28,235 nt of DNA, from positions 1 through 28,235 of the IMG/VR virus record IMGVR_UViG_3300049740_002247; one strand, written 5' to 3'. Position numbers and translations under genes: made by a program. The stretch's first letter is position 1. Each line of letters starts with the position of its first letter. Of the stretch, positions 269 to 28,235 are shown one piece after another. The DNA is from a virus. The notes below the pieces were generated by a model, which was not told where the DNA came from, ran no database searches, and was given only the letters and a program-made list of their open reading frames with translations.

Positions 269-1876
269 ATGATTGAAAAAAGTGTGATTTTCGGCGATGA
301 TAGCCGGGAGAAACTTAAAAAGGGAATTGATATACTAGCAGAAGCAGTTTCATCTACCCTTGGTGCTTCTGGAAGAACTGTAATCATAGAAGACCAATTT
401 GGAACCCCCCACATTACTAAAGATGGGGTGACAGTAGCAAACAGTATTATACTATCAGATCCTGTTGAGAATCTTGGAGCAAGCATTTTAAAACAGGCGT
501 CACAAAAAACCGCCACAGAGGCAGGGGACGGAACAACGACCTCGTGCGTTTTAGCAAAGTCTATTATCGACAACTGTTTTATGAATATAGACAAGATCGA
601 TAATGTAACTCAAGCAAAAGAAGGGATAGAGACAGCAGCTAAAAATTTAGTGAGTATCCTGGAAAAAATGAAAAAGGAAGTTTCACCTGACACCCTTGAG
701 CAGGTAGCAACAATTTCTGCAAACGGCGACAACTACATTGGTAAAATGATTTCAGATGCCTATAACAAGGTTGGAGTAGACGGCGTTGTAACAATGGACG
801 AATCTCCCACAGGCGAAGACTATACTGAAATTACCAACGGAACCAAAATAAAAAGAGGGTACGGGACGCCATTTAGCGTGAACAACCTCCGCGCAAAGTC
901 AGTGGAGTACCAAAACCCACTTATAGTCGTTAGCGACACAAAGATAGACATGCATGAAAGACTTCACTTTGCCTTTGAGCAGTCAATCAAACAAAAACGA
1001 CCGCTTTTGATCATTTCTGATTTAGATGACAGGGTAAAGCTATTCATTGCACAGAATATAAATAAAAAAAATCTGACAGCAAACTTTATTCTACCTGAAG
1101 GTATAGGGATTAAAAAGTTTGAACTATTGGAGGATTTGTGCGTTATGACAGGAGCAAAGATGATATCAGAGATGTCAGGAGATGCAAAAGAGAACATTGA
1201 TGAGTCCTACCTTGGTACTTGTAGACAAATGATATCAAACTCTTCTGAAACCGTGCTTGTCTTTGATGACGAGCCAAACCAAAAGAAACAGGAGATCATT
1301 GAGTGGATTAGTAATGAGATCAAACTTGAGAAGAATAAGACTGAAAAGTGGCACCTGCAGGATAGACTGTCTAAGTTAGCTGGTGGGGTGGCTACTATTA
1401 AGCTTGCTGGTAACTCAGAAGTTGAGCTTAAAGAGAAAAAGGATCGTGTAGATGACTCCATCCACGCAACTAAAGCTGCCCTTGAGGAAGGGATTGTTGC
1501 TGGTGGAGGTATTGCCCTACTAGACGCTTTCCAAAAAATCGGCGGAAAAGCGCCCCGAGGCTCCTCCCCTTCATTTGCGTTAGGCTATAAAATGATGGTT
1601 TGGTCTATACCAACAGTATGGGATAAGATCATTTCGAACTCTGGGCAGGAAATCGACCCTCATAGTGAAAGGAAGATGAAGAACAGACGTAAAGGATATG
1701 GTATTGATGTTAAAACCAAAAAATTCGGTAATATGTTTAACATGGGCATTGTTGATCCATTTAAGGTTACAAAGAACGCAATACTAAATTCTGCATCTGT
1801 GGCCTCCACGATTCTAACGACATCATGTGTAATTTCTAATAAAAGAATAAAAAAGACAGATGAAAGCAGTGGGTAA
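269..1876 (+). CDS. groEL: Phage-encoded chaperonin GroEL (Hsp60)
   Basis: A 535-aa group I chaperonin, expected to form the ATP-driven folding ring. It is collinear with E. coli GroEL in both equatorial segments. The phosphate loop GDGTTT is at residues 86-91 and ITKDGV with Asp52 is present. The hinge motif RVDDSIHATKAALEEG carries Asp396, equivalent to the catalytic Asp398, followed by GIVAGGG. GNMFNMGIVDPFKVTK carries Asp496, equivalent to Asp495. The apical domain is much more divergent. The C-terminus ends in a Lys/Ser tail and lacks the usual Gly-Gly-Met repeats, so the ring cavity floor would differ. Its last 17 bases overlap the groES start, indicating coupled translation. It sits at the head of a virion gene region, so its clients are probably phage structural proteins (inference). 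The family assignment is secure. Confidence 0.96.
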   Translation: MIEKSVIFGDDSREKLKKGIDILAEAVSSTLGASGRTVIIEDQFGTPHITKDGVTVANSIILSDPVENLGASILKQASQKTATEAGDGTTTSCVLAKSIIDNCFMNIDKIDNVTQAKEGIETAAKNLVSILEKMKKEVSPDTLEQVATISANGDNYIGKMISDAYNKVGVDGVVTMDESPTGEDYTEITNGTKIKRGYGTPFSVNNLRAKSVEYQNPLIVVSDTKIDMHERLHFAFEQSIKQKRPLLIISDLDDRVKLFIAQNINKKNLTANFILPEGIGIKKFELLEDLCVMTGAKMISEMSGDAKENIDESYLGTCRQMISNSSETVLVFDDEPNQKKQEIIEWISNEIKLEKNKTEKWHLQDRLSKLAGGVATIKLAGNSEVELKEKKDRVDDSIHATKAALEEGIVAGGGIALLDAFQKIGGKAPRGSSPSFALGYKMMVWSIPTVWDKIISNSGQEIDPHSERKMKNRRKGYGIDVKTKKFGNMFNMGIVDPFKVTKNAILNSASVASTILTTSCVISNKRIKKTDESSG

Positions 1877-2138
1877 GTTTGTAATCGTCCAAGATGAGGA
1901 GGTTATACAAAAAAATGATTTAGGATTAATTATTACAGAGCAATCAGATCAGAACATTAGGTACATAATCGGTGAGGTTGTAAGTTGTGGTGATGATGTA
2001 AAAGAGGTAAAACCAGGTCAATACGTTTACTTTGATAAAGTGTCAGGCTCTGAGCTGCGCGTCAAAGGTAATAAGTACAAAGCCATCCGGGAGCAAGACG
2101 TGGTTGTAACTATGGATAATGTTGATTCCGTTATTTGA
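1860..2138 (+). CDS. groES: Phage-encoded co-chaperonin GroES (Cpn10)
   Basis: A 92-aa Cpn10-type beta-barrel expected to cap the phage or host GroEL ring. It starts with KFVIVQDEE, matching the first GroES strand. A mobile-loop region with hydrophobic LGLII (about residues 22-26) stands where GroES has GGIVL. It then shows GEVVSCGDDVKEVKPGQYVYF, the typical GEV...VK.GD.V.F pattern, and ends in the IREQDVVVTMD strand. The gene begins inside the groEL end and its own end overlaps the next start by 20 bases, so the three genes form one translationally coupled unit. The length (92 versus about 97 aa) and order are normal for Cpn10, but the sequence is divergent, fitting a partner co-evolved with the phage GroEL. 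Confidence 0.93.
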   Translation: MKAVGKFVIVQDEEVIQKNDLGLIITEQSDQNIRYIIGEVVSCGDDVKEVKPGQYVYFDKVSGSELRVKGNKYKAIREQDVVVTMDNVDSVI

Positions 2139-2865
2139 TTACGACAAGCATCGTGTCATAATGGAAACTTCATTTCGTTTTGAAGGTAAGGATTACCTTT
2201 ATTTTCCAGACGGGTGTAAGTTTTACTCTCTTTACCGGACAGAACGCAAGATAAATTCTTTCTCAGAGCTAGAATATATAACAGAAAAGTTTAACCACCT
2301 AAACCCAGAGTTTGATCCAGATTTAACTAAACGCCTGTTCTGTGAACTTGCAGACAGAGGATCTGGACACATAATAAGAACTTATGGAGAAGGCAGGGTT
2401 GAAGCTATGGTTGATAGAGTTTTGACTAAAAACAAAGAGCCATACTGCCCTAGACTGCGTAAAATTTTATTCAACTCTAACAAAATGCTATCTAGAACCC
2501 AGAAGATGCAGATAGTAGGATCACTTATAAGTGCAAAAGAAAAACCACAAGAAGAAGATATAGCAGCAGTGATTGAAGATATGTGGATTCAGCTTGAGAA
2601 AATAACCATTACAAAGGTAGCGCAAGAACTTAACACCACAAGACACCTTGTCAGGTGGTACTTTACAGACGAGATCATGAGCTCAGTTAGAAGTGCAAAT
2701 CAAGAAATCAGACAGAAAAAGATTATTGCTAAATGTATAGAGGCTATTGATATTTTAACTGAAGGGGGTAACAAGCTGAAAATGAGAGAGTTAAAGAAAT
2801 TAACTTCAGTCAGAGATTATTTTTTGCTAAAAAAATCTATAGTTTGCTATCAGGATCGGATTTAG
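2119..2865 (+). CDS. Helix-turn-helix protein of unknown role (248 aa)
   Basis: A 248-aa protein whose residues about 161-185 (ITITKVAQELNTTRHLVRWY) look like a helix-turn-helix unit, within a helical, charged C-terminal half. The N-terminal half (FEGKDYLYFPDGCKFYSLYR) is not recognised. The start at 2119 overlaps groES by 20 bases and gives a natural N-terminus (MLIPLFDY); ATG 2161 (METSFRF) is an alternative. The last 29 bases overlap the end of the convergent minus-strand regulator. It could be a transcription factor or a DNA-binding packaging protein. Its position away from TerL argues mildly against a small terminase, but does not exclude it. Confidence 0.75.
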   Translation: MLIPLFDYDKHRVIMETSFRFEGKDYLYFPDGCKFYSLYRTERKINSFSELEYITEKFNHLNPEFDPDLTKRLFCELADRGSGHIIRTYGEGRVEAMVDRVLTKNKEPYCPRLRKILFNSNKMLSRTQKMQIVGSLISAKEKPQEEDIAAVIEDMWIQLEKITITKVAQELNTTRHLVRWYFTDEIMSSVRSANQEIRQKKIIAKCIEAIDILTEGGNKLKMRELKKLTSVRDYFLLKKSIVCYQDRI

Positions 2866-3331
2866 TTCTATTCATTTTCTCAATGACTTTTTTGTAAATC
2901 TTGTCTGTGTAGTTAGATTTTTTAAATATTGGGTTAGATCTTGGTTCTTCAGATATTGGCTCTTCCATAAGAAGCTTTTTGTATGTTAAAGAGCATATAG
3001 TCTTTCCTTTGTGAGATAGTGTCCATAGTTTCGCTCTTGCAAATCTCTCACCACCCGGCCTCCACTCTTTGATAAGATCCTTCGAAACCATCTCGTAAAA
3101 CCTCTTTTTATCCCACGACATGGTGTTGCCGTAGTAATTGAAGTCATCTTTTCTAAAATGTGGCAGATCATAAAGATACAGAAGCATATCGAGCTCCATG
3201 GCCGATATATCGTACTTTCTCCTTATGTAATAACGAACAACTCTCCAGTACTTTAGAAAGTTGTGTTGACGCTCACGTGGTTGTGTTTTAACTGTCTTTC
3301 TACCACTTCTTTTATATAGTCTAACACTCAA
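2837..3331 (-). CDS. Winged-helix (MarR-like) transcriptional regulator, TTG start
   Basis: This is the only minus-strand gene. About 164 aa from TTG at 3331. The region FLKYWRVVRYYIRRKYDISA, then MELDMLLYLYDLPHF, SWDKKRFYEMVSKDLIKEW and LWTLSHKGK gives the helix-turn-helix plus wing order of MarR-type proteins; the tail is charged. The frame is open back to an ATG at 3481, but that start would overlap the divergent gene at 3399 by 83 bases, and the extra 50 residues do not look like part of a MarR-type domain. A -7 box (TATTTTTG on the minus strand, 3356-3349) lies 17 bases before TTG 3331, the same geometry as other promoters here. The 67-base divergent gap to the + gene at 3399 suggests it may regulate that operon or itself (inference). 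It overlaps the HTH gene tail-to-tail. Confidence 0.78.
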   Translation of the reverse strand: MSVRLYKRSGRKTVKTQPRERQHNFLKYWRVVRYYIRRKYDISAMELDMLLYLYDLPHFRKDDFNYYGNTMSWDKKRFYEMVSKDLIKEWRPGGERFARAKLWTLSHKGKTICSLTYKKLLMEEPISEEPRSNPIFKKSNYTDKIYKKVIEKMNRTKSDPDSKL

Positions 3332-3348
3332 TCTGTAAAAGTTTATCC

Positions 3349-3356
3349 CAAAAATA
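3349..3356 (-). promoter_or_regulatory. Putative -7 box of the minus-strand regulator
   Basis: On the minus strand this reads TATTTTTG, matching the Bacteroidetes TAnnTTTG -7 consensus, 17 bases before the TTG start at 3331. No convincing -33 TTTG is seen at the standard distance. Confidence 0.35.
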
Positions 3357-3373
3357 CGAAAAACATTTTTTGG

Positions 3374-3381
3374 TATCTTTG
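3374..3381 (+). promoter_or_regulatory. Putative -7 box for the small basic protein operon
   Basis: TATCTTTG followed by C matches the Bacteroidetes -7 consensus TAnnTTTG. It ends 17 bases before ATG 3399, giving a leader of roughly 10 bases. The same nine bases (TATCTTTGC) recur at 14552-14560 before a fibre gene. No clear -33 element was found. Confidence 0.5.
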
Positions 3382-3398
3382 CTAAAAATAAACAAGCT

Positions 3399-3986
3399 AT
3401 GCCAACAGGTAAATACAGAATGCGGAAATCTCTTCGTCCGTATGTTCGAAAAGACATCCCAATGACATTCTCACCAGACACAAAGCTAAAAAACGAAACA
3501 GCAGGGGGAATTAGATTCGACCTTATGCATCCTGAAGTATACAGAGACGCAAAAAAAGTAGAAAAAGGGATTGAAAGAAGCTATAGGCTTTTGCAAAAAG
3601 GTACTGCTAAATCTGAGATGCAAAGACTTCAATCGAAAGGAAAAGTAGCTAATATATATTTAAAAATTGAAGGCAACCCTGACATTAGTGATAAGCGTAA
3701 AGCTAGACTTAAAAAAAGAGCCCTTAAAATACAAAAAAGAGGAATAAGAAGATCTGCTAGAGCAAAGCATCGTTTGTACAAAAGAGCAGGGAAAATATAT
3801 CAAAGAAGTATAGAAGGCCAGAGAGGTGCTGTCGCAAGTTTAGGTAATTTAGGTAAACAACAGTTTGATGCGTTTGGATCTATGGCAACGCATTACAGAA
3901 AAACATCAGACCCTTACGGAAAGGAGAAAGATAAAAACAAGATGAGTGGGTATGACCTCCTCAAAGCTTATAGATCAGGTAAATAA
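3399..3986 (+). CDS. Basic, helix-rich hypothetical protein (195 aa)
   Basis: A 195-aa Lys/Arg-rich protein with a helical centre (for example RKARLKKRALKIQKRGIRRS around residues 107-126) and a C-terminus ending in LLKAYRSGK. There is no signal peptide or membrane segment. It is the first gene after the putative promoter at 3374-3381, and its stop overlaps the next start as TAATG. The function is unknown. Its strong positive charge and company of other basic proteins among virion genes suggest nucleic-acid binding or a packaged internal protein (inference). Confidence 0.82.
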   Translation: MPTGKYRMRKSLRPYVRKDIPMTFSPDTKLKNETAGGIRFDLMHPEVYRDAKKVEKGIERSYRLLQKGTAKSEMQRLQSKGKVANIYLKIEGNPDISDKRKARLKKRALKIQKRGIRRSARAKHRLYKRAGKIYQRSIEGQRGAVASLGNLGKQQFDAFGSMATHYRKTSDPYGKEKDKNKMSGYDLLKAYRSGK

Positions 3987-8000: not shown

Positions 8001-9265
8001 ATACAGCTGTCGGATCTGATGCTGGTCAAAACATTACAACAGGATCAAACCTTACGACTATAGGATTTAATGCTCAGCCTAGCTCTGATATTGCACAGAA
8101 CGAAATTACCCTGGGAGATACGAATGTAACTAAGCTAAGGATCCCAGGTTTAGCAGACGCTGCAGCGGATGATGGTAAGGTTTTAACATACAGCAACTCA
8201 TCAGGGGCATTTGTTGCAACTAGCCCAACTGGGTCTTCGGTTAGCTCTTTCAATGACTTAACAGATGGACAAGCTAACTCAACAGATAAGTGGATATTCT
8301 TAGGTGATCACGCAACATGGACAAATAGTAACGCTAACGATAATATGATAGGTATTGGGTTTAACCAGCTCAACAACCTCACAACTATGGCGTATAACCA
8401 GGGCGGTTTGATAGCTATTGGTAACCAAGTATTTAATTCTATTTCAACATCGAACTTTTTTGGCGGTTTTGCCATTGGACACGGAGCGGGTGCAAATCAA
8501 GTATCGGGTCAGGGAATGTTTTATATAGGGGGTTCAGCAGGTGGAAACACAACTACGGGTAGTTACAATACATTTGTTGGTGGTGCTGCAGGAATGAATG
8601 TAGGATCAGGATCTTACAACACCACTTTAGGTAGAGCAACATTATCTTCCTCTGGCTTAAAAGACTGTGATTATAATATCGCTATCGGTGATAGTGTTCT
8701 AGGTGGCCCAGACCCGGGTGATCATAACATTGCAATGGGAACTCTTGCTTTAAACGCAATAGATAAGTCAGTAACCGGAGATAGCCAAAACAACATTGCT
8801 ATTGGTTCGAGATCATCTACAGACCTAACGAGAGGTTATGGAAACGTTGCAATGGGTGTTGATTCTGGTGGTAACATAACAACAGGATATAACAACACAG
8901 TTATTGGTCATGAAGCGGCATGGCAACCTACAGGATCAAACTTAACGACTGGAAACAACAATATCGTAATTGGGTATCAGGCTAAAACAAGGTTCCCTAG
9001 CTCTGACAACGAGATTATACTTGGAAATAATGATAATGACATCCTGAGAATACCAGGTCTGGCAAGACTAACTGGAGATGAAGATAAAGTTTTGGCTTAC
9101 AACCACGCAGCTGGAGGGTTCGTTGCTAATGATGATTTTGTAAAATCTTCTTCACCTAGTGGAACGCAGATTACAGAGATTGTCACGTTGTCGCAAACGG
9201 AGTACGACGCTTTATCCATAGGATCCAACACGCCTGATGCAGACAAATTATATATTATAGTGTAA
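5072..9265 (+). CDS. Giant tail fibre with YadA-like beta-roll modules (1397 aa)
   Basis: Probably a trimeric receptor-binding fibre. Residues 1-50 (MARIHTYDLDGTIDPNDRII to QLQSYISG) form a short head shared in pattern with the fibre at 14580, probably the virion anchor. Residues about 100-800 are Gly/Ser/Thr-rich beta repeats, with recurring GTVTSVSGGTGLSGTVTASG units. Residues about 840-1050 and 1090-1350 are two modules of left-handed beta-roll repeats like YadA/Hia heads (SVAVGYQAGL, SSIAIGSNAL, NTAIGYES). Each module ends in E-I-x-LG...LRIPGLA and then G/DKVLxY...FVA. The C-terminus TEIVTLSQTEYDAL...LYIIV is a typical fibre end. Repeat-driven recombination is likely. The TAATG overlap couples it to the next gene. 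Several antisense frames inside it are compositional artefacts. Confidence 0.92.
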   Translation: MARIHTYDLDGTIDPNDRIIGSDGAEGANFATKNFTVSQLQSYISGGLSSFSTIQVNGQSDVTASSGSALKFVAGANVTLLTDPSQNSITIASSGSGGSGGGTGTVTSVTPADTNLLTITNQTTNPEIAVVTAAPVSGGTGLVTSGDVFTYITNQSFTSNAGTVTEITAGTGLTGGSITDTGTIDLADTSVQAGDYTNANITVDAQGRITAAADGTAGSSGSSMTFTASSPLTGGVIGDGEALGITQASANTDGFLSSDDWNTFNNKVSYPSADQTKLAGIENGAEVNVKANWNESNSNSDAFIQNKPTIPTNNNELTNGAGYTTNTGTVTSVLGGAGLSGSVTTSGSLAIDLNDIAGDSLAILTDSIAFVNSTNATRKTTVNSLLTSVAGSGLQVNSTTGQLETTGTGSGSVTSVGLSFGTIQAFTVSGSPITGSGTLSVSMGGASSQVVLGDGSLGSYTTGTVTSVATSAPLTGTVTTTGTIGITQASTSQDGYLSASDFQTFNNKGTGTVTSVSGGTGISGTVTASGSLDLDLNSLGTEVSVKEDFFVFTDTSDSNNPKKQALSGFLSGIAGSGLQYNSTSGELEGVSGGGGTVTNVTSATTGQLTVASGNSTPALSIVTGSVVDSGTALATGDQIYDFVTTQGYTTNTGTVTSVSGGTGLSGTVTASGSIDLDLNGLSPVAIDVANDFIAFADASDSGNTRKTTIALLATAMAGSGINANNGVLSAASASGVTSVTGTSPIVSSGGTTPAISLANSGVTAGDYTNANITVDAFGRVTAAADGTAGSGSGATSLTGLSDANVENASLYVGNDPSGITTQALYNTVLGLTAGDTLTSGDSNVFVGYDAGLTYTTGDRSVAVGYQAGLNTNANDVVAIGTGAGKNATTSSIAIGSNALSNTGLVGANNTAIGYESMLNAQASHSSVAVGYRSLRQTSGGIRNTGVGHKALTTQTSGSDNVAVGFEALEFITTGFKNTAVGSDAGQNITTGSNLTTIGFNAQPSSDIAQNEITLGDTNVTKLRIPGLADAAADDGKVLTYSNSSGAFVATSPTGSSVSSFNDLTDGQANSTDKWIFLGDHATWTNSNANDNMIGIGFNQLNNLTTMAYNQGGLIAIGNQVFNSISTSNFFGGFAIGHGAGANQVSGQGMFYIGGSAGGNTTTGSYNTFVGGAAGMNVGSGSYNTTLGRATLSSSGLKDCDYNIAIGDSVLGGPDPGDHNIAMGTLALNAIDKSVTGDSQNNIAIGSRSSTDLTRGYGNVAMGVDSGGNITTGYNNTVIGHEAAWQPTGSNLTTGNNNIVIGYQAKTRFPSSDNEIILGNNDNDILRIPGLARLTGDEDKVLAYNHAAGGFVANDDFVKSSSPSGTQITEIVTLSQTEYDALSIGSNTPDADKLYIIV
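6047..7108 (+). repeat. Dispersed 87-bp (29-aa) repeats in the giant fibre
   Basis: Three copies of a 29-residue unit of the form [N/G]TGTVTSVsGGtGlSG then TVTASGSlDLDLN occur at 6047-6133, 6596-6682 and 7022-7108, with shorter GTVTSV echoes at about 5384 and 6458. They diverge mainly at synonymous sites, so the repeat is selected at protein level. Each precedes a segment of the form ...FiaFaD.sdSnn.rKtti..ll...AGSGl, so the true period includes more than the 29 residues. Confidence 0.75.
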
Positions 9266-10530
9266 TGGCAGATTTTAGAATTGGAGGAACACAAATTGCA
9301 AGCGGCAAAATAAAAGTCGGTGATTCTGATGTGTCTAAAATATACCAAGGATCGACTCTTGTGTGGCCTCCAGCTCCCTCTAATTGCGGGCCTGACACCA
9401 TTATTATTGGCGATCAGTGTTGGACAACAGAAAATGAAACATCTACAACAACACAAGGTAGCACATTCACCTTGAGCACAAGCGGAGTTTCATCAGGACA
9501 ACCAGCATCCAGTTATGCATATAACCCTAGTGTTGGCGGCACCATTGTTAATACAGTGGTATATGTAAATTTTGATGCTCCTAGTGTTGCTGCAAACTAT
9601 ACTGGTAGTGGATGTTTGATAGTTGGAAAAAAATATAAGATTACTTTTACTGATGGCACTACAACTTTTGATGGAGTGTGGGAATGGGAAGGCCACTTCA
9701 ATAATACTCGCAAAGGCGCCTTCACAACAGCACGAACTCCTGGTTATTATGAATGTTCAACGTCAAATGCAAACCCTTTAAGTAACGATGACCAATACTG
9801 GATTATCAGCTTTTTCGATGCAGACCTAAATGATAGAACAACTGATATGCGAGAGACATACGAATGCATGGATACAGGTTGTAACACTTCTAATCCAAAT
9901 TATAATGGCAACCAATGGACAGTTACAGTAGGAGATCTTAATGACACCTCCTATACCTACAGCACTGCTCCTGCATCTATTACAATAGCCACTACCCAAC
10001 AGCAATTACAAGATTATATTGACGATCAAGTGCCTGCAGCTTGCTATTGGGATTTTAACTCCAATAATAGTCATCGTGGACTATACTACAATGCGTATGC
10101 AGCAAGAATATTACAACCTCCTTCTTCTGATTATAGAATGCCATCTATAGGTGATTGGCATGACTTAAGAGACGAGGTTAATAATGCAACCTCTGGCGGA
10201 CAGTTTGGTAACTTTGAATGTACAGCATTGATTACAGACGACCAAAACTCTGGGTGGTCTTCGACTTGGTATAATTATTCTCACGCCGCCTCAAGCGGTT
10301 TTGATGCATATCCTTATGAATGGGTTCGTGCTGATGCTAATAGTCCTTTTCCATCAATTGACAATCAAGGAAGTTGGTGGAGGAAAGAGGCGACTGATCC
10401 TTTTGGTTCGAGTGCTGTTTTTGAATCTACAGTATCGATTATTACTTCTTCATTCGAAAACGGTGCACAAATGGGAACGCAAGGAAATAATAACAAATAT
10501 GCAACCGTGAGGTGGCTTAAAGATGTATAA
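9265..10530 (+). CDS. FISUMP (Fib_succ_major)-domain fibre or adhesin (421 aa)
   Basis: The N-terminus RIGGTQIASGKIKVGDSDVS then KIYQGSTLVWPPAPS is a short tail-protein head. IGDQCWTTEN (about residues 48-57), then a central insert, then CYWDFNSNN..GLYYNAYAAR (about 259-280), RMPSIGDWHDLRDE, and the end YATVRWLKDV follow the layout of the Fibrobacter succinogenes major paralogous domain (WTTEN ... CYYnd...YG.LYNwyA ... W+vPs.aeW..L ... SVRCVKD). That domain is common in Bacteroidetes secreted and surface proteins. The roughly 200-residue insert after WTTEN is unusual and beta-rich, with scattered cysteines. The probable role is receptor or glycan binding at the fibre tip (inference). It is coupled to the giant fibre by a TAATG overlap. 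Confidence 0.83.
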   Translation: MADFRIGGTQIASGKIKVGDSDVSKIYQGSTLVWPPAPSNCGPDTIIIGDQCWTTENETSTTTQGSTFTLSTSGVSSGQPASSYAYNPSVGGTIVNTVVYVNFDAPSVAANYTGSGCLIVGKKYKITFTDGTTTFDGVWEWEGHFNNTRKGAFTTARTPGYYECSTSNANPLSNDDQYWIISFFDADLNDRTTDMRETYECMDTGCNTSNPNYNGNQWTVTVGDLNDTSYTYSTAPASITIATTQQQLQDYIDDQVPAACYWDFNSNNSHRGLYYNAYAARILQPPSSDYRMPSIGDWHDLRDEVNNATSGGQFGNFECTALITDDQNSGWSSTWYNYSHAASSGFDAYPYEWVRADANSPFPSIDNQGSWWRKEATDPFGSSAVFESTVSIITSSFENGAQMGTQGNNNKYATVRWLKDV

Positions 10531-11707: not shown

Positions 11708-12010
11708 ATGGCACAGGAGGTTTCAGAAAACACAAAGCTAACACTTGATCTAAAAACACTAGGCATGGTTGTCGGGTTTACTGTGAGCTTAGCAACTATG
11801 TATTTTACTTTAAAATCAGAAATAGCTTTAGCTATGGACGAACCAAAGCCTGCAGTGACATCTGTAGAGTTTGAATACAAAGACAAGCTTGTCAGGAGCA
11901 CAATAGAAAAGATTGACACAGACTTATCTTCAGTTAAGGGAGATGTGGAAGAGATTAAGGAACAACTCAACAAAATAGACGAGAGACTCTATGAGATAAG
12001 CCAGAGATGA
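11708..12010 (+). CDS. Single-TM coiled-coil protein, i-spanin-like candidate (100 aa)
   Basis: The frame is open from 11687, but ATG 11708 (MAQEVSENTK), two bases after the preceding stop, is the natural start. A hydrophobic helix at about residues 19-38 (TLGMVVGFTVSLATMYFTLK) is followed by a polar linker and a heptad-rich coiled coil (IEKIDTDLSSVKGDVEEIKE then QLNKIDERLYEI). The N-in, C-out TM plus periplasmic coiled coil is the layout of inner-membrane spanins, and it opens the lysis cassette. No lipoprotein partner was found, so this is a layout-based guess. Its stop overlaps the next gene as ATGA. Confidence 0.82.
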   Translation: MAQEVSENTKLTLDLKTLGMVVGFTVSLATMYFTLKSEIALAMDEPKPAVTSVEFEYKDKLVRSTIEKIDTDLSSVKGDVEEIKEQLNKIDERLYEISQR

Positions 12011-12351
12011 AAACTTATTTATTTACTGGAATATTAGCAATGCTTTCTTTTGCGTTGCAAGCACAGGATTACAAAAACAACATATCAGTAGTACAATTTA
12101 GCGCTTCATTTGTAGAAGAAAACGAAATATCTCTCAAAAAGTTTAGGGAGTATAATACATATACTTTTCGAATAGAAAACGACACAGACAAGTTTGTCAA
12201 AGAAGCTATTGAGTTTATACCAACACTTGTGTTGTATAATAACGGAAAAGAGATTGCTAGAATAGAAAGCGGCATTTCTTTGAAGTTGCCAGATGATTGT
12301 GAACAGATCGTCATGGAAAAAATTGAGGAAATCATAGAAAGCAAATTTTAG
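12007..12351 (+). CDS. Exported thioredoxin-like protein lacking the CXXC site (114 aa)
   Basis: A 114-aa protein with an N-terminal signal peptide (MKTYLFTGILAMLSFALQAQ, probable cleavage after residue 18 or 20), so the mature protein should be periplasmic. The mature part follows the thioredoxin fold: strand ISVVQFSASF where thioredoxin has VVDFWA, a middle strand TYTFRIENDT, helix FVKEAIEF, then IPTLVLYNNGKEIARIESG with the typical cis-Pro IPT loop (71-73). The active-site Cys-Gly-Pro-Cys is replaced by a Phe-Val-Glu-Glu region, and the only Cys is near the C-terminus (residue 98), so redox activity is unlikely. It lies between a spanin-like gene and an outer-membrane protein gene in the lysis cassette, suggesting a binding or scaffold role in the periplasm (inference). 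Confidence 0.84.
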   Translation: MKTYLFTGILAMLSFALQAQDYKNNISVVQFSASFVEENEISLKKFREYNTYTFRIENDTDKFVKEAIEFIPTLVLYNNGKEIARIESGISLKLPDDCEQIVMEKIEEIIESKF

Positions 12352-12353
12352 AT

Positions 12354-13529
12354 ATGAAAAAACACTTACTGCTATCAATTATAATGCTTGTTTCAACTCA
12401 GATTCAAGCACAATTTTTTAAGACCATATATGATGAGCTGTTTAAATATGGAACTCTTTATGTGGCTGGAGATGTAGAGAACGCAAGTGAAGCCTCTTAC
12501 CCAGAGTATTTTGTTAGAACAAATCCAGATAATCTTTATGATATACCAGAAGTAGTTGATCAAACTATTTATCATCCCTACGATTACAGGTACTCTGTAG
12601 GAATAAGAAGATTAGCTCGATTCGATTATGAAATCAAATCAAAAAATTACTATGACGGCACAGAAAACAACAAAGCTTTATCGGCACCAACAGCAGCTGT
12701 AAAAGGTTTTGAGTACTTAATACACTTTGAAAAAGAAAGAGAAAGAGGTAGAGAGTTTACAAACTCTAGGTTATTTTTAAGACACACCGGTAAATATCAT
12801 ATTGCTAAAATTGAACAAAGAGAAGAAGGAAATGTTGATTTTAAATACAAATCAGGTGAAATTCGTTTGCGCTTACCTATCGGTAAAAAACTATCTATAT
12901 CGGCTGGCGGAATTTACAGAACGCACGTTAAGGCTTATGGGTATAATCCAATAGAGTTATGGCTAAACGAGCAAGACGAAACAGGTATGGCAAAAAACCC
13001 GTGGTGGACTCTAGGATATCAGTACGGATACCAGGATGAGCTTGTGAGGCATACAAATGAAGCTACAGGAGAAGAAATGTGGCATTGGTGCTGGAGAGAC
13101 CCTCAGGGTAATGTTGTAGCATATACAGATGAAGAGTTTAGGGATAACATCTTCGGAGATCTAATGAATGACTTTAATAAACAAAAATGGAGTGAACTAG
13201 AGCCTTTTGCAGAAATAGCACCTATAGTCGGATTTGACTTTTATCACTACACACCTAATTTTTGGATGCATCTGTATGGAAACTGGATTTTACCACACCA
13301 CAAGTACGTTTCAGGTAACGTAGATTTTAGTTACCTCCACAGGGAAAGCTGGGGCAAAGGCGGTCATAACAACCTTCTAGGTGGAAAGCAATGGGAAGAC
13401 TATCAAGCTGGTTTAATGCTGGGCGTGAAACTGTCAAAAAGATTTGGTATATTTATTGAAGGAGAATACGTAAGGTTTTGGGATTCTGAGATTTACAACT
13501 CTTCTGTAGGTATAAACTTTAGATTATAA
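12354..13529 (+). CDS. Phage-encoded outer-membrane beta-barrel-like protein (391 aa)
   Basis: A 391-aa protein with a clear signal peptide (MKKHLLLSIIMLVSTQIQAQ). The mature chain is rich in aromatic residues and alternating hydrophobic/polar strands, for example IRLRLPIGKKLSISAGGIYR, FDFYHYTPNFWMHLYGNWIL, LMLGVKLSKRFGIFIEGEYV, ending in VGINFRL. Paired GxxL/GxxI strands in the last 60 residues are typical of outer-membrane barrels, although the C-terminal residue is Leu rather than Phe. No lipobox is present. I do not recognise a family. Phage-borne barrels are rare; candidate roles are outer-membrane disruption at lysis, masking of a receptor (superinfection exclusion), or a virion protein. 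Its place inside the lysis cassette favours the first (inference). Confidence 0.85.
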   Translation: MKKHLLLSIIMLVSTQIQAQFFKTIYDELFKYGTLYVAGDVENASEASYPEYFVRTNPDNLYDIPEVVDQTIYHPYDYRYSVGIRRLARFDYEIKSKNYYDGTENNKALSAPTAAVKGFEYLIHFEKERERGREFTNSRLFLRHTGKYHIAKIEQREEGNVDFKYKSGEIRLRLPIGKKLSISAGGIYRTHVKAYGYNPIELWLNEQDETGMAKNPWWTLGYQYGYQDELVRHTNEATGEEMWHWCWRDPQGNVVAYTDEEFRDNIFGDLMNDFNKQKWSELEPFAEIAPIVGFDFYHYTPNFWMHLYGNWILPHHKYVSGNVDFSYLHRESWGKGGHNNLLGGKQWEDYQAGLMLGVKLSKRFGIFIEGEYVRFWDSEIYNSSVGINFRL

Positions 13530-20413: not shown

Positions 20414-20445
20414 TAATTTTAGAAAATCAATAAAACAAGTGATTA

Positions 20446-21404: not shown

Positions 21405-21959
21405 ATGAAATCTCCTTACTACTTCATTATCAAGCCGTTAGGCGACGAATACAATAATGAGGTGGAGATATCAGGGCAAAAGATCATAGTCAACTCTACG
21501 GTTGAGGATCATAAGCATGTAAATAGACTTGCGGAAGTTGTTTATGCTCCAAGCAGGAGTACAAAAGTCAAGTCTGGCGACATAATAGTCGTACATCACA
21601 ATATATTCAGGATATACTACGACATGAAAGGTAGGGCAAAGAAATCGCCCAACTACTTCAAAGATGGTATGTATTTTATAGATGAATATCAGTTTTATCT
21701 TTACAATGACGGAAAAGAGTGGAAGTCAGTTGGCAATTATTGCTTTGTCCAGCCAATAGATAAAGAAAATTCTTATCTTTATGAGGAGGGTACAGAGCTC
21801 AACACCGGGTATGTTGTATACGATAATGATTACCTAAACGACCTTGGTGTTAAATTAGGCGATAAAGTAAACTTTACTAAAAACAGTGAGTATGAGTTTA
21901 CTATAAACGACACTGTTTTGTACCGTATGAGAACTAACGATATATGTGCCTTGCTATGA
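21405..21959 (+). CDS. Tandem GroES-like fold protein (184 aa)
   Basis: The two halves each follow the GroES strand order. Half 1: YYFIIKPLGDE (5-15), LAEVVYAP (42-49), KVKSGDIIVVHHNIFRI (54-70), then YFIDEYQFYLY (90-100). Half 2: NYCFVQPIDKEN (111-122), GYVVYDND (135-142), GVKLGDKVNFTKNSEYEF (148-165), then TVLYRMRTNDICALL. These match GroES 'RVIVKR...', 'GEVLAVG', 'VKVGDIVIF' and 'EEVLIMSESDILAI'. No clear mobile loop is present in half 2. The bona fide GroES at 1860 is separate, so this is a second, duplicated Cpn10-like barrel placed with head genes. It could be a capsid-specific chaperone, cap or structural protein (inference). The fold call is by eye and untested. Confidence 0.75.
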   Translation: MKSPYYFIIKPLGDEYNNEVEISGQKIIVNSTVEDHKHVNRLAEVVYAPSRSTKVKSGDIIVVHHNIFRIYYDMKGRAKKSPNYFKDGMYFIDEYQFYLYNDGKEWKSVGNYCFVQPIDKENSYLYEEGTELNTGYVVYDNDYLNDLGVKLGDKVNFTKNSEYEFTINDTVLYRMRTNDICALL

Positions 21960-22234
21960 AAGATGTAAATGAAATAAAAGAAAGAATCATAAAGGCTGGG
22001 CATGAAGCTGTCAACCAGCTCATAAAGGTTGCGGAAGAGGAGATCATAAAACCAGATCCAGATGATGAGCTCGCTGCAGATAGGTTAAAAAATGCTGCAG
22101 CTACAAAAAAACTAGCGATATTCGATGCTTTTGAAATACTTAACAGAATTGAGAACGAAAAGAACTTGATAGAGAATCCAGAAGAGGAAAAAACAAATTT
22201 AACAGGTGGTTTTGCAGAACGAAGATCTAAATAA
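21956..22234 (+). CDS. Candidate small terminase or accessory protein (92 aa)
   Basis: ATG 21956 overlaps the preceding stop as ATGA; the upstream ATG 21944 in the same frame is less likely. The protein is helical and acidic: EIKERIIKAGHEAVNQLIKV, then DPDDELAADRLKNAAATKKL, then AIFDAFEILNRIENEKN. The ADxLKNAAATKKLAIFDAFEIL segment looks family-specific. Its size, all-helical build and position directly upstream of TerL (29-base overlap) make it the best small-terminase candidate in the window, but no DNA-binding motif is obvious. Confidence 0.83.
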   Translation: MKDVNEIKERIIKAGHEAVNQLIKVAEEEIIKPDPDDELAADRLKNAAATKKLAIFDAFEILNRIENEKNLIENPEEEKTNLTGGFAERRSK

Positions 22235-24458
22235 TTTAGGTGTTGTACTAAAGGACTTTATACCAAAAAAGATCTTAGATGACACAAACAAAAAAAAGGG
22301 GTTCCGTTATGGATACAATCCTGATATAGATGCTGTAGTTATATCCAAAGATGGTACGATAGGAGATGTAGTCAGAATTAATCATTTAAACATAGCTCTT
22401 CCAAAAAAACCTGCAGATATTCATAAAAGGGCAGTTAAACGGAAAGATCAGTTCTGGGAAGCATCTGAGTATCCGAAACAACTACGCCCATTACAGACCA
22501 TATTTCAGTGGAATGAAATGCCCCGTGATTTCAAAGAAACATGGGTTCCTTATATCGAAAAGGTGTTTAACTACAGAGAGAATGGTTATTGGTTTTACAA
22601 CAAAGGAACGCCAACGTACATTACAGGGAGTCATTATATGTACCTACAATGGACTAAAATTGATATAGGTAAGCCGGAGTACAGGGAGTCAAATAGAATA
22701 TTTTTTATATTCTGGGAAGCGTGTAAAGCAGATTCTAGGTGTTATGGAATGTGTTACTTAAAGAACAGGAGATCTGGGTTTTCATTTATGTCATCAGCTG
22801 AAGCCGTCAATCAAGCCACCATAACATCAGATGCTAGGTTTGGGATATTGTCAAAGACGGGTGCTGATGCAAAAAAAATGTTTACAGATAAAGTTGTACC
22901 TATATCTGTTAACTACCCATTTTTTTTCAAACCAATTCAGGATGGTATGGATAGGCCGAAGTCTGAGTTAGCCTATAGAGTTCCTGCATCAAAACTCACA
23001 AGAAAATCAATAGCTAACACAAACATTATTAGTGACTTACAGGGACTAGATACCACAATAGATTGGAAGAATACAGGGGACAACAGTTACGATGGTGAAA
23101 AACTTGCACTTCTTGTTCACGATGAAAGTGGTAAGTGGGAAAAGCCAGATAACATACTAAACAATTGGAGGGTTACCAAAACATGTTTGAGGCTTGGTAG
23201 TAGGGTTATCGGTAAGTGCATGATGGGATCAACAAGTAATGCTTTAGATAAAGGTGGAAACAACTTTAAAAAACTGTTTTATGACTCTGACCCCACAACA
23301 CGCAACTCAAACGGACAAACCAAAAGTGGCATGTATAGCTTGTTTATTCCTATGGAGTGGAACATGGAGGGGTTTATAGATAAGTATGGGCAACCTGTTT
23401 TAGAGACACCAGATTCGCCAATAACCAGCGTAAATGGTGATGACATTCACCAAAGCGCATTACAATATTGGCAAAACGAAGTGGATAGTCTCAAAAATGA
23501 TCCAGATGCATTAAATGAATTTTACCGTCAATTCCCACGTACTGAGTCACATGCGTTTAGAGACGAGTCAAAGAACACCTTATTTAATTTGACAAGAATA
23601 TATGAGCAGATAGATTACAACGATTCATTTGCTATCAAATCAAGTGTAAGTAGGGGAAACTTTTACTGGAAGAATGGTCAAAGGGATACAGAAGTTGTGT
23701 TTTCTCCTGATAGAAAAGGTCGGTTTTTTTTAAGTTGGATACCATCCAAAGAAATGATGAACAATGTAGAGGAAAGAAACGGACGTAAGTTCCCTGGTAA
23801 CGCTCATATAGGAGCCTTTGGTTGTGACTCATATGATATATCGGGAACAGTTGGTGGTGGTGGATCAAAAGGATCTTTGCATGGAATGACTAAATTTCAC
23901 ATGGATGACGCTCCAACTAATATGTTTTTCCTAGAATACATATCCAGACCTCCAACAGCAGAGATATTTTATGAAGATGTGTTAATGGCTTTACATTTTT
24001 ATGGCATGCCAATTCTTGTCGAAAACAACAAACCTAGATTACTATATTATCTCAAGGACAGGGGTTACAGGCCTTTTTCTATAAATAGACCAGATAAACA
24101 TAAAAACATACTGTCAAGAGCAGAAAAAGAGCTCGGTGGCATACCTTCATCTCAATCCGTAATTTCTGTACATGCAGAAGGTATAGAAAGCTTTATTCAA
24201 ACTCATGTTGGTGTGATAAAAGACGAAAGAGATACGGACTTTGGAAGTTGTGGAAATATGTTTTTTAATAGAACTTTGTTGGATTGGGCAAACTATGATA
24301 TAAATAACAGAACCAGGTTTGATGCCACAGTAAGTTCGGGTTTTGCGATTATGGCAAATCAAACGACAAAGAATAACAGACAAGAAAAACGTAATCAAAT
24401 AAATCTTAACTTTGCAAAATACAGTAACAAAGGTTTTGTTAGTGAAATTATTAGGTGA
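22206..24458 (+). CDS. terL: Terminase large subunit (750 aa)
   Basis: The packaging motor ATPase and headful nuclease. GTG start at 22206, overlapping the preceding gene by 29 bases. NGYWFYNKGTPTYITGSHYM (about 129-148) is the N-terminal signature shared with crAss-like and related TerL. A deviant Walker A KNRRSGFS at 186-193 has the lysine at the start. Walker B is LALLVHDE with Asp306-Glu307, and the coupling motif is MMGSTSN at 339-345. The RNase H-like nuclease acids are Asp541 (FGCDSYD), Glu606 (ILVENN) and Asp706 (TRFDATVSSG). The length is in the large class typical of Bacteroidetes phages. The portal gene follows, with its ATG two bases after this stop. Confidence 0.94.
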   Translation: MVLQNEDLNNLGVVLKDFIPKKILDDTNKKKGFRYGYNPDIDAVVISKDGTIGDVVRINHLNIALPKKPADIHKRAVKRKDQFWEASEYPKQLRPLQTIFQWNEMPRDFKETWVPYIEKVFNYRENGYWFYNKGTPTYITGSHYMYLQWTKIDIGKPEYRESNRIFFIFWEACKADSRCYGMCYLKNRRSGFSFMSSAEAVNQATITSDARFGILSKTGADAKKMFTDKVVPISVNYPFFFKPIQDGMDRPKSELAYRVPASKLTRKSIANTNIISDLQGLDTTIDWKNTGDNSYDGEKLALLVHDESGKWEKPDNILNNWRVTKTCLRLGSRVIGKCMMGSTSNALDKGGNNFKKLFYDSDPTTRNSNGQTKSGMYSLFIPMEWNMEGFIDKYGQPVLETPDSPITSVNGDDIHQSALQYWQNEVDSLKNDPDALNEFYRQFPRTESHAFRDESKNTLFNLTRIYEQIDYNDSFAIKSSVSRGNFYWKNGQRDTEVVFSPDRKGRFFLSWIPSKEMMNNVEERNGRKFPGNAHIGAFGCDSYDISGTVGGGGSKGSLHGMTKFHMDDAPTNMFFLEYISRPPTAEIFYEDVLMALHFYGMPILVENNKPRLLYYLKDRGYRPFSINRPDKHKNILSRAEKELGGIPSSQSVISVHAEGIESFIQTHVGVIKDERDTDFGSCGNMFFNRTLLDWANYDINNRTRFDATVSSGFAIMANQTTKNNRQEKRNQINLNFAKYSNKGFVSEIIR

Positions 24459-24460
24459 TT

Positions 24461-26902
24461 ATGATAAATAAGCCGAAGTTCATTTCAGGCAGTGGTTTTC
24501 CTAATCAATTTGTGTCAGACATAGAGAAGGATACGTATGAGTATGGTCTCCGTGTTGGGCATGCTATTGAGTCCGAATGGTTCGCAAGAGACCACGGTAG
24601 TAGTATATATGGGGAAATAAGATCTGAATATTTAACTAGAAGATTGTACGCTAGAGGGCAGCAGCCTGTTGATAAGTACAAAAACGAATTATCCGTCAAT
24701 GGCGATCTTTCTTATTTAAACCTTGATTGGACACCCGTCCCTATCATTCCTAAGTTTGTAGATGTTGTAGTCAATGGCATATCTAATAGGCTATTAGATG
24801 TTAAAGTTGAAGCAGTAGATGATTTGTCTTCTATGAAAAGGGAGATGTTTAAAAGGGATATGCAATCAGATATGTCAGCAAAACCTGTGCTGTCTATGAT
24901 AAAGCAAAATACAGGAGTTGATGCATTTTTATTTCCACAAGAAGAAATACCAGAGACTGATGAGGAATTAGGGCTGTATATGGATCTTAAGTATAAGCAA
25001 GGCGTGGAGGTTGCTGAAGAGGCAGCTATTAAAACCATTTTAGAGCTTAACGAATACGACGAGCTAAAAAGAAGAATAGACGAAGATAATGTTGTTCTTG
25101 GTATTTCAGCTATGAAACACTCTTTTGACCCTCACCACGGTGTTCGTCTAGAGTATGTTGATCCTGTAAATTTTGTATACTCACCAACTGAAGACCCAAA
25201 TTTTAGAGATTGTTATTACTTCGGAGAGGTAAAATCTGTACATGTTACAGAGATAAAAAAAATAAATCCAAGTCTTACACAGGAAGAAATAGAGGAAATA
25301 TCAAAACTTGCAAGTAGGTTTGATGGTTACAGAAGCACACAGAACCTTCAGAGTCAGAGTGGTTTAGATAAATCTAACGTTAGTCTTCTTTACTTTTGCT
25401 ACAAAACAGATCGTGAAGTTGTATACAAGGTTAAGCAAAACCAAAACGGTGGCGAAAAGCCGTTAAAAAAAGACGGTAACTTTAACCCTCCTAAGACAGA
25501 ACAAGCTAGATTTACAAGGGTAGCAAGAAGGATAGACGTATGGTATGAAGGTGTGCTTGTTTTAGGAACAAATCATTTATTAAAGTGGGGAGTAATGAGT
25601 AATATGGTTAGGCCAAAATCGGCTTTTCAAAAAGCTCTACCCCCATATATTGCATCTGCCATAAAAATGTCAAAAGGTAATGTAGATTCTTTAGTCAAAA
25701 GAATGATCCCTTTTGCTGACCAAATACAATTAACACACCTAAAACTACAACAGGTCGTTGCGAAAATGATACCAGATGGTGTGTTTATTGATGCTGATGG
25801 TTTAAATAGTGTAGACCTTGGTAATGGGGCGTCTTATAACCCTTCTGAAGCCCTATCTATGTATTTCCAAACAGGTAGTGTTATCGGTAGAAGTTACACG
25901 GAGGACGGTGACTTTAACAACGCTCGAGTTCCTATCCAAGAGTTAACTAGCAGTGGATCAAATGCTAAGATCGCAAGTCTTATTAATATGTACAACTACC
26001 AGCTCAACATGATTAGAGCTGTAACGGGCATCAATGAGGCGAGAGACGGAAGCAACCCTGATCAATATGCTCTTGTAGGTTTACAAAAACTAGCTGCCTT
26101 AAATAGTAATACAGCAACAAGACACGTTATTCAGTCTGGTATATTCCTAACAAAAAGGCTTGCAGAAGCTATATCTTACAGAATATCCGATATACTAGAG
26201 TATGCTGATTTCTCTGAAGACTTTGCGAAGATGATAGGGAAAAATAATTTTGAAATTGTTCAAGAAGTAAAATCACTTCATCTACATGACTTTGGTATAT
26301 TCATTGAAATTGAGCCTGATGAAGAAGAAAGACAAATGTTGGAGCAAAATATTCAGCAATCGATTCAATCAGGACAGATAGGCTTAGAGGATGCTATTGA
26401 TATTCGCAGCATAAAAGATATTACTCTTGCAAACAGTTTACTGAAGATACGTAAGGTAAGAAAAGAGAAGAAAGAGATGGAAAAGCAACAAGCAGCCATC
26501 CAGATGCAGACTCAATCAAATACTCAATCTGCTCAAGCTGCTTCTCAATCAAGAATGCAGGAAGAACAATTTAAAACTCAATCTGAATCTCAGATGGAGC
26601 AAATGAAAGCGGAGTTAGAGTTGCAACGTATGCAAGCAAAACAGCAACTTGACGCAGAGATGTTAAAACTTAAGCATCAATTCGACCTAGAACTAAAACA
26701 AGCGGAAGCTAATATTTTTAAGGGCAGAGAGGAGTATAAAGAGAATCGTAAAGATAACAGAACAGACAAGCAAGCCTCTCAACAGAGTAAATTAATTAGA
26801 CAACGCAAAGATAACACGCCTCCTGTTGATTTCGAAAAGGAAGGTGAAAACTCTGATGTTTTAGCTAACTTTAGAAATATGATGGGTCAAGAAAACGCAT
26901 AG
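24461..26902 (+). CDS. Portal protein (813 aa)
   Basis: The dodecameric DNA gateway. ATG 24461 (MINKPKF), two bases after the terL stop, is preferred to GTG 24455. The N-terminal half (EYLTRRLYARGQQPVDKYKN, SYLNLDWTPVPIIPKFVDVV, VNGISNRLLDVKVEAVD) is typical of the large portals of crAss-like and related phages. A central part (KMSKGNVDSLVKRMIPFADQ, INEARDGSNPDQYALVGLQK) corresponds to the portal stem and crown. The last 150 residues are a Gln-rich coiled coil (MQEEQFKTQSESQMEQMKAE) and a charged tail, a common portal ending. The position between terL and the scaffold/capsid genes confirms the call. Confidence 0.92.
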   Translation: MINKPKFISGSGFPNQFVSDIEKDTYEYGLRVGHAIESEWFARDHGSSIYGEIRSEYLTRRLYARGQQPVDKYKNELSVNGDLSYLNLDWTPVPIIPKFVDVVVNGISNRLLDVKVEAVDDLSSMKREMFKRDMQSDMSAKPVLSMIKQNTGVDAFLFPQEEIPETDEELGLYMDLKYKQGVEVAEEAAIKTILELNEYDELKRRIDEDNVVLGISAMKHSFDPHHGVRLEYVDPVNFVYSPTEDPNFRDCYYFGEVKSVHVTEIKKINPSLTQEEIEEISKLASRFDGYRSTQNLQSQSGLDKSNVSLLYFCYKTDREVVYKVKQNQNGGEKPLKKDGNFNPPKTEQARFTRVARRIDVWYEGVLVLGTNHLLKWGVMSNMVRPKSAFQKALPPYIASAIKMSKGNVDSLVKRMIPFADQIQLTHLKLQQVVAKMIPDGVFIDADGLNSVDLGNGASYNPSEALSMYFQTGSVIGRSYTEDGDFNNARVPIQELTSSGSNAKIASLINMYNYQLNMIRAVTGINEARDGSNPDQYALVGLQKLAALNSNTATRHVIQSGIFLTKRLAEAISYRISDILEYADFSEDFAKMIGKNNFEIVQEVKSLHLHDFGIFIEIEPDEEERQMLEQNIQQSIQSGQIGLEDAIDIRSIKDITLANSLLKIRKVRKEKKEMEKQQAAIQMQTQSNTQSAQAASQSRMQEEQFKTQSESQMEQMKAELELQRMQAKQQLDAEMLKLKHQFDLELKQAEANIFKGREEYKENRKDNRTDKQASQQSKLIRQRKDNTPPVDFEKEGENSDVLANFRNMMGQENA

Positions 26903-28131: not shown

Positions 28132-28235
28132 ATGGCACAATCTATTACTTTTAATGGAAGTGGAGCTGTCGCAGGATCTACTTCATTAACACCCGCTCCA
28201 GGGAAGTCGTTATCCAATGATAACTACCTTTCTAA
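28132..28235 (+). CDS. Probable major capsid protein, 5' end only
   Basis: ATG 28132, 26 bases after the scaffold-like gene, opens a frame that runs off the window after 34 codons (MAQSITFNGSGAVAGSTSLT then PAPGKSLSNDNYLS). The Gly/Ser/Thr-rich start resembles the N-arm of a capsid protein, and the position after terL, portal and scaffold is where the major capsid gene belongs. There is too little sequence to confirm a fold. Confidence 0.6.
   Translation, partial: MAQSITFNGSGAVAGSTSLTPAPGKSLSNDNYLS

What the first reader, a model, noticed from the sequence alone, without database searches (positions are those of the whole stretch)
269..2138. Complete phage GroEL/GroES pair in a virion gene region
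Both chaperonin partners are present and overlap by 17 bases. The GroEL keeps the ATP-site residues (Asp52, GDGTTT, Asp396, Asp496), so it should be active, but its apical domain is divergent and the Gly-Gly-Met tail is missing. Phages with a GroEL are known but uncommon; a matched, coupled pair with structural genes suggests a private folding machine for capsid or the giant fibres.
Basis: partly seen in the sequence, partly recalled or inferred. Interest (0 to 1): 0.7.

Follow-up and report, generated by a model that had tools for sequence, protein, structure and literature searches.

The report
Phage chaperonin with two lids
This marine Bacteroidota phage carries its own version of the GroEL/GroES folding machine, as a large group of related phages does, plus a second, double-length lid protein next to its DNA-packaging gene, probably used to fold its capsid protein.

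Summary
In detail: window 269-1876 encodes an intact GroEL and 1860-2138 a GroES, overlapping by 17 nt, with the ATP-site residues kept, a divergent apical domain and no GGM tail. The pair is not a rarity. It belongs to a large, phage-only GroEL clade of marine Bacteroidota phages; GroEL homologues in such phages were already reported (PMC5332604) and are annotated in Elemovirus, phi38:1 and MW202828.

ORF 21405-21959 (184 aa), one gene upstream of terminase, matches the phage GroES family phrog_13932. Its C half is Cpn10 by sequence. Its AlphaFold model best matches chloroplast Cpn20, a tandem Cpn10. All 22 long contigs chosen only for their GroEL also carry it. The system is therefore GroEL + GroES + a Cpn20-like lid.

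In 79 of 80 phage loci GroES lies downstream of GroEL, against 72 of 72 upstream in bacteria. The GroES roof segment is the shortest form, as expected for a T4 gp31-like lid. Canonical apical binding residues are replaced. The capsid protein (50.5 kDa) is the likeliest client; fibres (120-139 kDa) are too large and vary independently. Client identity and ring state are inferred.

The parts
269..1876 (+). GroEL (535 aa, 58.5 kDa), group I chaperonin of a phage-specific clade; ATP site intact, apical binding face remodelled, no GGM tail
   Evidence: PF00118 1.8e-60, phrog_5725 1.6e-131, residue table, trees
1860..2138 (+). GroES1 (92 aa), single Cpn10 lid with hydrophobic mobile-loop motif GLIIT (residues 22-26) and the shortest roof segment class; start codon inside groEL
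   Evidence: PF00166 1e-10, roof segment 8 aa against 12 or 16-17 aa in most bacteria, AlphaFold model pLDDT 83.6, PDB matches to GroES and T4 gp31
21405..21959 (+). GroES2 (184 aa, 21.6 kDa), double-length co-chaperonin resembling plastid Cpn20; mobile-loop-like motif (GQKIIVN, residues 25-31) only in the first half
   Evidence: phrog_13932 1.8e-23, C half PF00166 below cut-off and HHalign probability 96%, AlphaFold model, best PDB match 7ekq_R Cpn20 at 8.4e-5
2119..2865 (+). 248-aa ORF overlapping the end of GroES1 by 20 nt; third gene of the cassette in this subclade, function unknown
   Evidence: conserved beside GroES1 in L004-L009; no Pfam, PHROG or NCBIfam match below 0.01
21944..22234 (+). 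96-aa ORF between GroES2 and terminase (small conserved gene of the packaging block)
   Evidence: 84-100% identical in near relatives
22206..24458 (+). terminase large subunit (landmark beside GroES2)
   Evidence: phrog_6681 4e-177
24455..26902 (+). portal protein
   Evidence: phrog_6547 2.1e-156
28132..28235 (+). start of the putative major capsid protein (cut by the window end); proposed main client
   Evidence: the same N-terminus in the overlapping contig G008, full protein 468 aa, 50.5 kDa; phrog_13704 virion structural protein for its MW202828 homologue

Best explanation
The window encodes a phage-lineage group I chaperonin system with three parts: a GroEL ring, a short-roofed GroES1 made from the same message (overlapping start), and a double-length, Cpn20-like GroES2 encoded in the packaging/head block. 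Proposed mechanism: late in infection the phage GroEL binds a phage structural protein through a remodelled apical face. ATP then drives capping by GroES1, GroES2 or a mixed ring of both. The reduced roof gives a roomier or more open cage, in the way T4 gp31 does, so that a capsid protein of about 50 kDa can fold. Shown: the genes, the intact ATP site, phage-only ancestry, the conserved order GroEL then GroES, the short roof, the joint presence of all three genes, and replacement of canonical apical residues. Inferred: activity, the N half of GroES2 being a Cpn10 domain (from a predicted fold), lid composition, the capsid protein as main client, and ring number.
For: Families and intact frames. 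Phage-only GroEL group, 100/98 support; window 97% to one contig and 73-82% to five more. GroES downstream and same strand in 79 of 80 phage loci against upstream in 72 of 72 bacterial loci. Roof segment 8 aa in 77 of 79 phage GroES; bacteria mostly 12 or 16-17. GroES2 best PDB match is Chlamydomonas Cpn20 over the full length. All 22 contigs picked for GroEL also hold GroES2, and in 24 of 24 contigs with both located it lies 267-886 nt upstream of the terminase match. Pairwise distances of GroES1 and GroES2 follow those of the capsid protein after terminase and portal are taken out (r 0.42-0.49, p 0.001). Capsid 50.5 kDa fits a cage; terminase, portal and large fibres (86-139 kDa) do not. In the relative phi38:1, phage GroEL was found by mass spectrometry in infected cells, and in free-virion samples it and the putative capsid protein were the two methylated phage proteins reported (PMC13288928).
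Against: No biochemistry exists for this clade, as far as the searched library shows. Partial Mantel tests are prone to false positives; for GroEL itself the residual link to capsid vanishes in the full set (r 0.06) and it links better to portal (r 0.50). A contig with 96% identical terminase (its available 254 residues) carries a GroEL only 41% identical, so one packaging module tolerates very different GroELs. The N half of GroES2 is not recognised as Cpn10 by sequence (HHalign probability 5-8%). The hydrophobic mobile loop has to bind an apical face with L234->H, L259->K and V264->Q, which is unexplained. phi38:1 has the opposite gene order.
Confidence: 0.55

Rival explanations
1. General folding aid: the phage GroEL and lids replace or supplement host GroEL/GroES for many phage proteins, without a main client, as described for the phiEL chaperonin.
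For: phiEL chaperonin is listed as promiscuous (PMC5934643). GroEL can be 41% identical behind a 96% identical terminase. GroEL distances also follow portal and terminase.
Against: Apical binding residues that are uniform in bacteria are replaced by other, clade-uniform residues (L234->Q in 78 of 80, V264->M in 74 of 80; H, K and Q in the window subclade), which suggests a narrowed client set. One lid gene is fixed beside the terminase.
Confidence: 0.25
2. The co-chaperonins act chiefly on host GroEL, as T4 gp31 does, and the phage GroEL is an optional addition.
For: Complete phi19:3 has both GroES1 and GroES2 but no GroEL. Window GroES1 keeps the hydrophobic mobile-loop motif.
Against: In the window's own clade GroEL and GroES1 overlap and change together (partial r 0.48; both swapped in G001), and all long contigs examined keep all three.
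Confidence: 0.12
3. Dedicated folding of the giant fibres.
For: The cassette lies upstream of the fibre genes; G002 shares both GroEL (97%) and the 1397-aa spike (91%) with the window.
Against: G014, G005 and G006 have 74-83% identical GroEL but largely unrelated spikes. Spikes are 120-139 kDa, above the usual GroEL cage limit. The fibre of a close relative (L015:5493-9029) carries its own intramolecular chaperone, PF13884.
Confidence: 0.05
4. Recent capture of a host groESL operon with no special role, or a decaying copy.
For: Two other phages do group among bacteria: Bacteroides DAC23 and Vibrio phiKT1024, so such captures happen.
Against: Window GroEL is deep in a phage-only group; gene order is reversed relative to every bacterial locus examined; active-site residues are intact in all 7 subclade members.
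Confidence: 0.03

Closest known systems
GroEL/GroES of marine Bacteroidota phages (Elemovirus, Cellulophaga phi38:1 and phi40:1, MW202828, Maribacter phage Panino; environmental genomes of Nishimura et al., PMC5332604)
   Same: GroEL plus Cpn10, a 180-195 aa second Cpn10 beside the terminase in the records compared, head module and portal related; same lineage (PMC11590407)
   Different: Window subclade has its own apical residues and a long stem; GroEL only 34-42% identical to the others; phi38:1 has GroES upstream and a more divergent GroES1
T4 gp31 co-chaperonin
   Same: Phage Cpn10-type lid without a full roof loop, found by structure comparison; gp31 is needed to fold capsid protein gp23 and enlarges the cage (PMC6318259)
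   Different: gp31 works with host GroEL; here the phage also brings GroEL and a second lid. The roof is short here but was not shown to be open
Chloroplast/apicoplast Cpn20 (tandem Cpn10)
   Same: Double-length co-chaperonin next to a single Cpn10 in one system; best PDB match of the GroES2 model
   Different: Plastid-type Cpn20 keeps mobile loop and roof in both halves (PMC3542282, stated for the apicomplexan protein); phage GroES2 seems to keep a loop only in the first half. No relatedness shown, convergence likely
Giant-phage chaperonins phiEL, OBP, AR9
   Same: GroEL-related chaperonins encoded by phages
   Different: Those work without a co-chaperonin, OBP and AR9 as single rings (PMC5934643, PMC9598537); the window's GroEL is closer to bacterial GroEL and comes with two lids

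Membership tests
Group I chaperonin (GroEL/Cpn60) | Cpn60 domain over the full length | tested here: met
   PF00118 205.5 bits against cut-off 34.3, model 1-489 of 490
Group I chaperonin (GroEL/Cpn60) | ATP-binding and hydrolysis residues (D52, GDGTTT, D398, D495) | tested here: met
   all present in window and in 80 of 80 phage relatives
Group I chaperonin (GroEL/Cpn60) | Hydrophobic apical substrate/GroES-binding residues (Y199, Y203, F204, L234, L237, L259, V263, V264); typical of bacterial GroEL rather than required for the family | tested here: not met
   window Y, F, S, H, F, K, A, Q; bacteria near-uniform for the canonical set. So: a group I chaperonin by domain and ATP site, but not a typical bacterial GroEL
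Group I chaperonin (GroEL/Cpn60) | Curated NCBIfam equivalog score for bacterial GroEL (TIGR02348) | tested here: not met
   447 bits against cut-off 582; two broader NCBIfam GroEL subfamily models are passed
Group I chaperonin (GroEL/Cpn60) | Works with a Cpn10 lid | tested here: inconclusive
   overlapping GroES gene present and co-varying; binding not testable
Group I chaperonin (GroEL/Cpn60) | Double heptameric ring | not testable with these tools
   inter-ring residues R452, A109, K105 not conserved, which is only suggestive
GroES/Cpn10 (GroES1) | Cpn10 domain, mobile loop with hydrophobic tripeptide | tested here: met
   PF00166 41.9 bits against 21.1; loop LGLIIT in window, hydrophobic in relatives
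T4 gp31-type lid | No roof hairpin | tested here: inconclusive
   roof segment 8 aa in 77 of 79 phage GroES against 12 (many Bacteroidota) and 16-17; gp31 itself was not aligned by sequence
Cpn20 (tandem Cpn10) | Two Cpn10 domains in one chain | tested here: inconclusive
   C half Cpn10 by sequence; N half only by predicted fold, whole-chain match to 7ekq_R at 8.4e-5, TM 0.56/0.54, rmsd 7.2
Cpn20 (tandem Cpn10) | Mobile loop in both halves | tested here: not met
   hydrophobic loop motif (KIIVN, KIVIN, ELIVS) only in the first half in most members; so 'Cpn20-like', not a member
Giant-phage (phiEL/OBP/AR9) chaperonins | No co-chaperonin | tested here: not met
   two co-chaperonin genes present

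The most novel reading that the evidence does not exclude
A widespread family of marine Bacteroidota phages runs a three-part chaperonin in which a tandem-domain lid (GroES2) and a single-domain lid (GroES1) form mixed or alternative caps on a phage GroEL with a re-engineered binding face, specialised for capsid protein: a viral counterpart of the plastid Cpn60/Cpn10/Cpn20 system, evolved independently.
Probability: 0.3. Interest if true: 0.75.

Novelty: new variant of a known kind. Interest (0 to 1): 0.5.

Why it matters
It would show that a complete chaperonin machine, including a second double-length lid, is a standard tool of a common group of ocean phages. It offers natural variants with changed substrate-binding faces and small roofs for testing how GroEL chooses clients and how cage size matters, and a second case of a tandem lid on a seven-fold ring outside plastids. 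It also makes the question 'which phage protein needs its own GroEL' testable in culturable relatives such as phi38:1 and Elemovirus.

Tried and rejected
Host capture: rejected by the tree and by gene order.

Fibre client: the fibre genes are replaced while GroEL stays, and they are too large.

A replication-gene baseline for the co-divergence test failed: the MW202828 VirE-like gene is found in only 3 of 27 genomes. A second structural gene was too divergent to use, so only terminase and portal serve as controls.

Single-ring prediction from inter-ring residues: R452, A109 and K105 are lost in the window, but bacteria themselves vary at E434 and N467 and no structure was modelled; left open.

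Roof loss as a sharp phage trait: softened, because many bacterial GroES in the set, Bacteroidota among them, already have a shortened 12-aa segment.

N half of GroES2 by profile comparison: no significant match; the claim rests on the predicted fold.

'Acinetobacter phage MD-2021a' as a GroEL-bearing phage: rejected, its GroEL sits among ordinary bacterial genes.

Full report
What is there. The window is a whole 28,235-base IMG/VR virus fragment. ORF 269-1876 is a full GroEL and ORF 1860-2138 a GroES; they overlap by 17 nt. Family matches are unambiguous. A third gene, 2119-2865 (248 aa, no family), overlaps the end of GroES by 20 nt and keeps its place in the nearest relatives. The rest of the window is fibre-like proteins, an M15 endolysin, a holin, terminase, portal and the first 104 bases of a capsid gene.

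A second co-chaperonin. ORF 21405-21959, one small gene upstream of terminase, matches the PHROG family 'co-chaperonin GroES' of 200 aa (1.8e-23). Pfam Cpn10 sees only its last 46 residues, just under the cut-off; 11 of 15 relatives give a Cpn10 match. Profile comparison confirms the C half (probability 96%) and is silent on the N half. An AlphaFold model from 15 natural homologues (pLDDT 79, pTM 0.77) has two successive strand sets of the GroES pattern. Its only PDB match below 0.001 is 7ekq_R, named the Cpn20 co-chaperonin subunit in the sequence search, a tandem Cpn10, over the whole chain; single Cpn10s and T4 gp31 follow. I call it Cpn20-like. A hydrophobic mobile-loop-like motif appears only in the first half. 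RefSeq labels the homologues in phi38:1, Elemovirus and phi19:3 'co-chaperonin GroES'. I found no paper in the searched library that describes the double architecture in phages, which is a limited search.

How widespread. Of the 80 best loci, 79 have GroES downstream on the same strand, nearly all overlapping or touching; all 72 bacterial loci with a detected groES have it upstream. The 80 were selected by similarity, so this describes the clade, not all phages. Every one of 22 long contigs chosen only by GroEL also holds GroES2. In 24 contigs where both were located GroES2 lies 267-886 nt before the terminase match. Complete phi19:3 has both lids but no GroEL; Gundel has none of the three. 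Prior literature: GroEL homologues in 36 genomes of a marine Bacteroidetes phage group related to Cellulophaga phages (PMC5332604), cpn10 as a core protein of Pervagoviridae (PMC8776804), GroEL and GroES in Panino (PMC11590407). The pair itself is therefore known.

Ancestry. In a careful tree of 52 sequences the 28 rows of this phage lineage are split from all 21 bacterial rows (100/98); DAC23 and phiKT1024 fall among bacteria, and immuto falls on the bacterial side of that branch. The window forms a tight subclade of seven with a long stem. A contig with 96% identical terminase and 99% identical GroES2 carries a GroEL from another branch of the phage clade (41% identical) with its own GroES (31%); DNA similarity resumes at window position 20417. 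So GroEL and GroES1 are exchanged as a unit, while GroES2 stays with the packaging block.

Mechanistic clues. ATP-site residues are intact apart from P33->A, which is shared by 74 of 80 relatives. The canonical binding residues of helices H and I are replaced: window L234->H, L237->F, L259->K, V263->A, V264->Q, Y203->F, F204->S; the large sister group uses a different set (Q234, M264, mostly H203). The inter-ring residues K105, A109 and R452 are not kept. GroES1 has the short roof class (8 aa; bacteria mostly 12 or 16-17). T4 gp31 lacks roof loops and gives a larger, more open cage for gp23 (PMC6318259), so a similar role is a reasonable inference.

Client. Sizes: capsid 50.5 kDa, terminase 86, portal 93, large fibres 139 and 120. 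That a GroEL cage takes proteins up to roughly 60 kDa is established knowledge. Pairwise distances over 28 genomes: GroES1 and GroES2 retain a correlation with capsid after terminase and portal are removed (0.43 and 0.42; 0.49 for both within 20 marine contigs); GroEL does so only within the marine set (0.40), not over all (0.06). Such tests overstate significance. In phi38:1 the phage GroEL is made during infection, and in free-virion samples GroEL and the putative capsid protein were the two phage proteins reported as methylated (PMC13288928); carry-over from lysate is not excluded. Together this favours capsid, at about even odds or slightly better, and disfavours fibres.

Verdict. Observation confirmed; interpretation half right. 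The pair is an ordinary member of an under-appreciated phage chaperonin clade. The interesting part is the third component and the fixed changes in the binding face, which make this a new variant of a known kind. Activity, ring form, lid composition and client remain untested.

Noticed in passing
window 2119-2865: 248-aa basic ORF overlapping groES by 20 nt, conserved next to groES in six relatives; no Pfam, PHROG or NCBIfam match. Possible third member of the cassette.
   Followed up: partly
window about 20417; L072 10517: Sharp mosaic boundary: downstream the window and contig IMGVR_UViG_3300049225_000447 are 96% identical, while upstream the chaperonin, lysis and fibre block is largely different.
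   Followed up: partly
window 12007-12351 and 12354-13529: Two neighbouring ORFs begin with signal-peptide-like sequences; the 391-aa one looks by eye like an outer-membrane beta-barrel. Odd for a phage lysis/fibre region.
   Followed up: no
window 2837-3481 (minus strand): 214-aa phrog_17028 protein on the opposite strand to its neighbours; in L015 a homologue follows groES on the same strand, so this small block was inverted in one lineage.
   Followed up: no
window 9265-10530: Fibre-like protein with a Fib_succ_major domain (PF09603, 2.1e-8), a domain named after Fibrobacter surface proteins, possibly at a receptor-binding end.
   Followed up: no
L005, L007, L008, L009: In these relatives GroEL and GroES are separated by about 200-450 nt instead of overlapping.
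   Followed up: no
L086 (CAKLQF020000019.1): A record labelled 'Acinetobacter phage MD-2021a' holds groES-groEL among ordinary bacterial genes (pckG, lipid kinase, acrB); it looks like host DNA misfiled as phage.
   Followed up: partly
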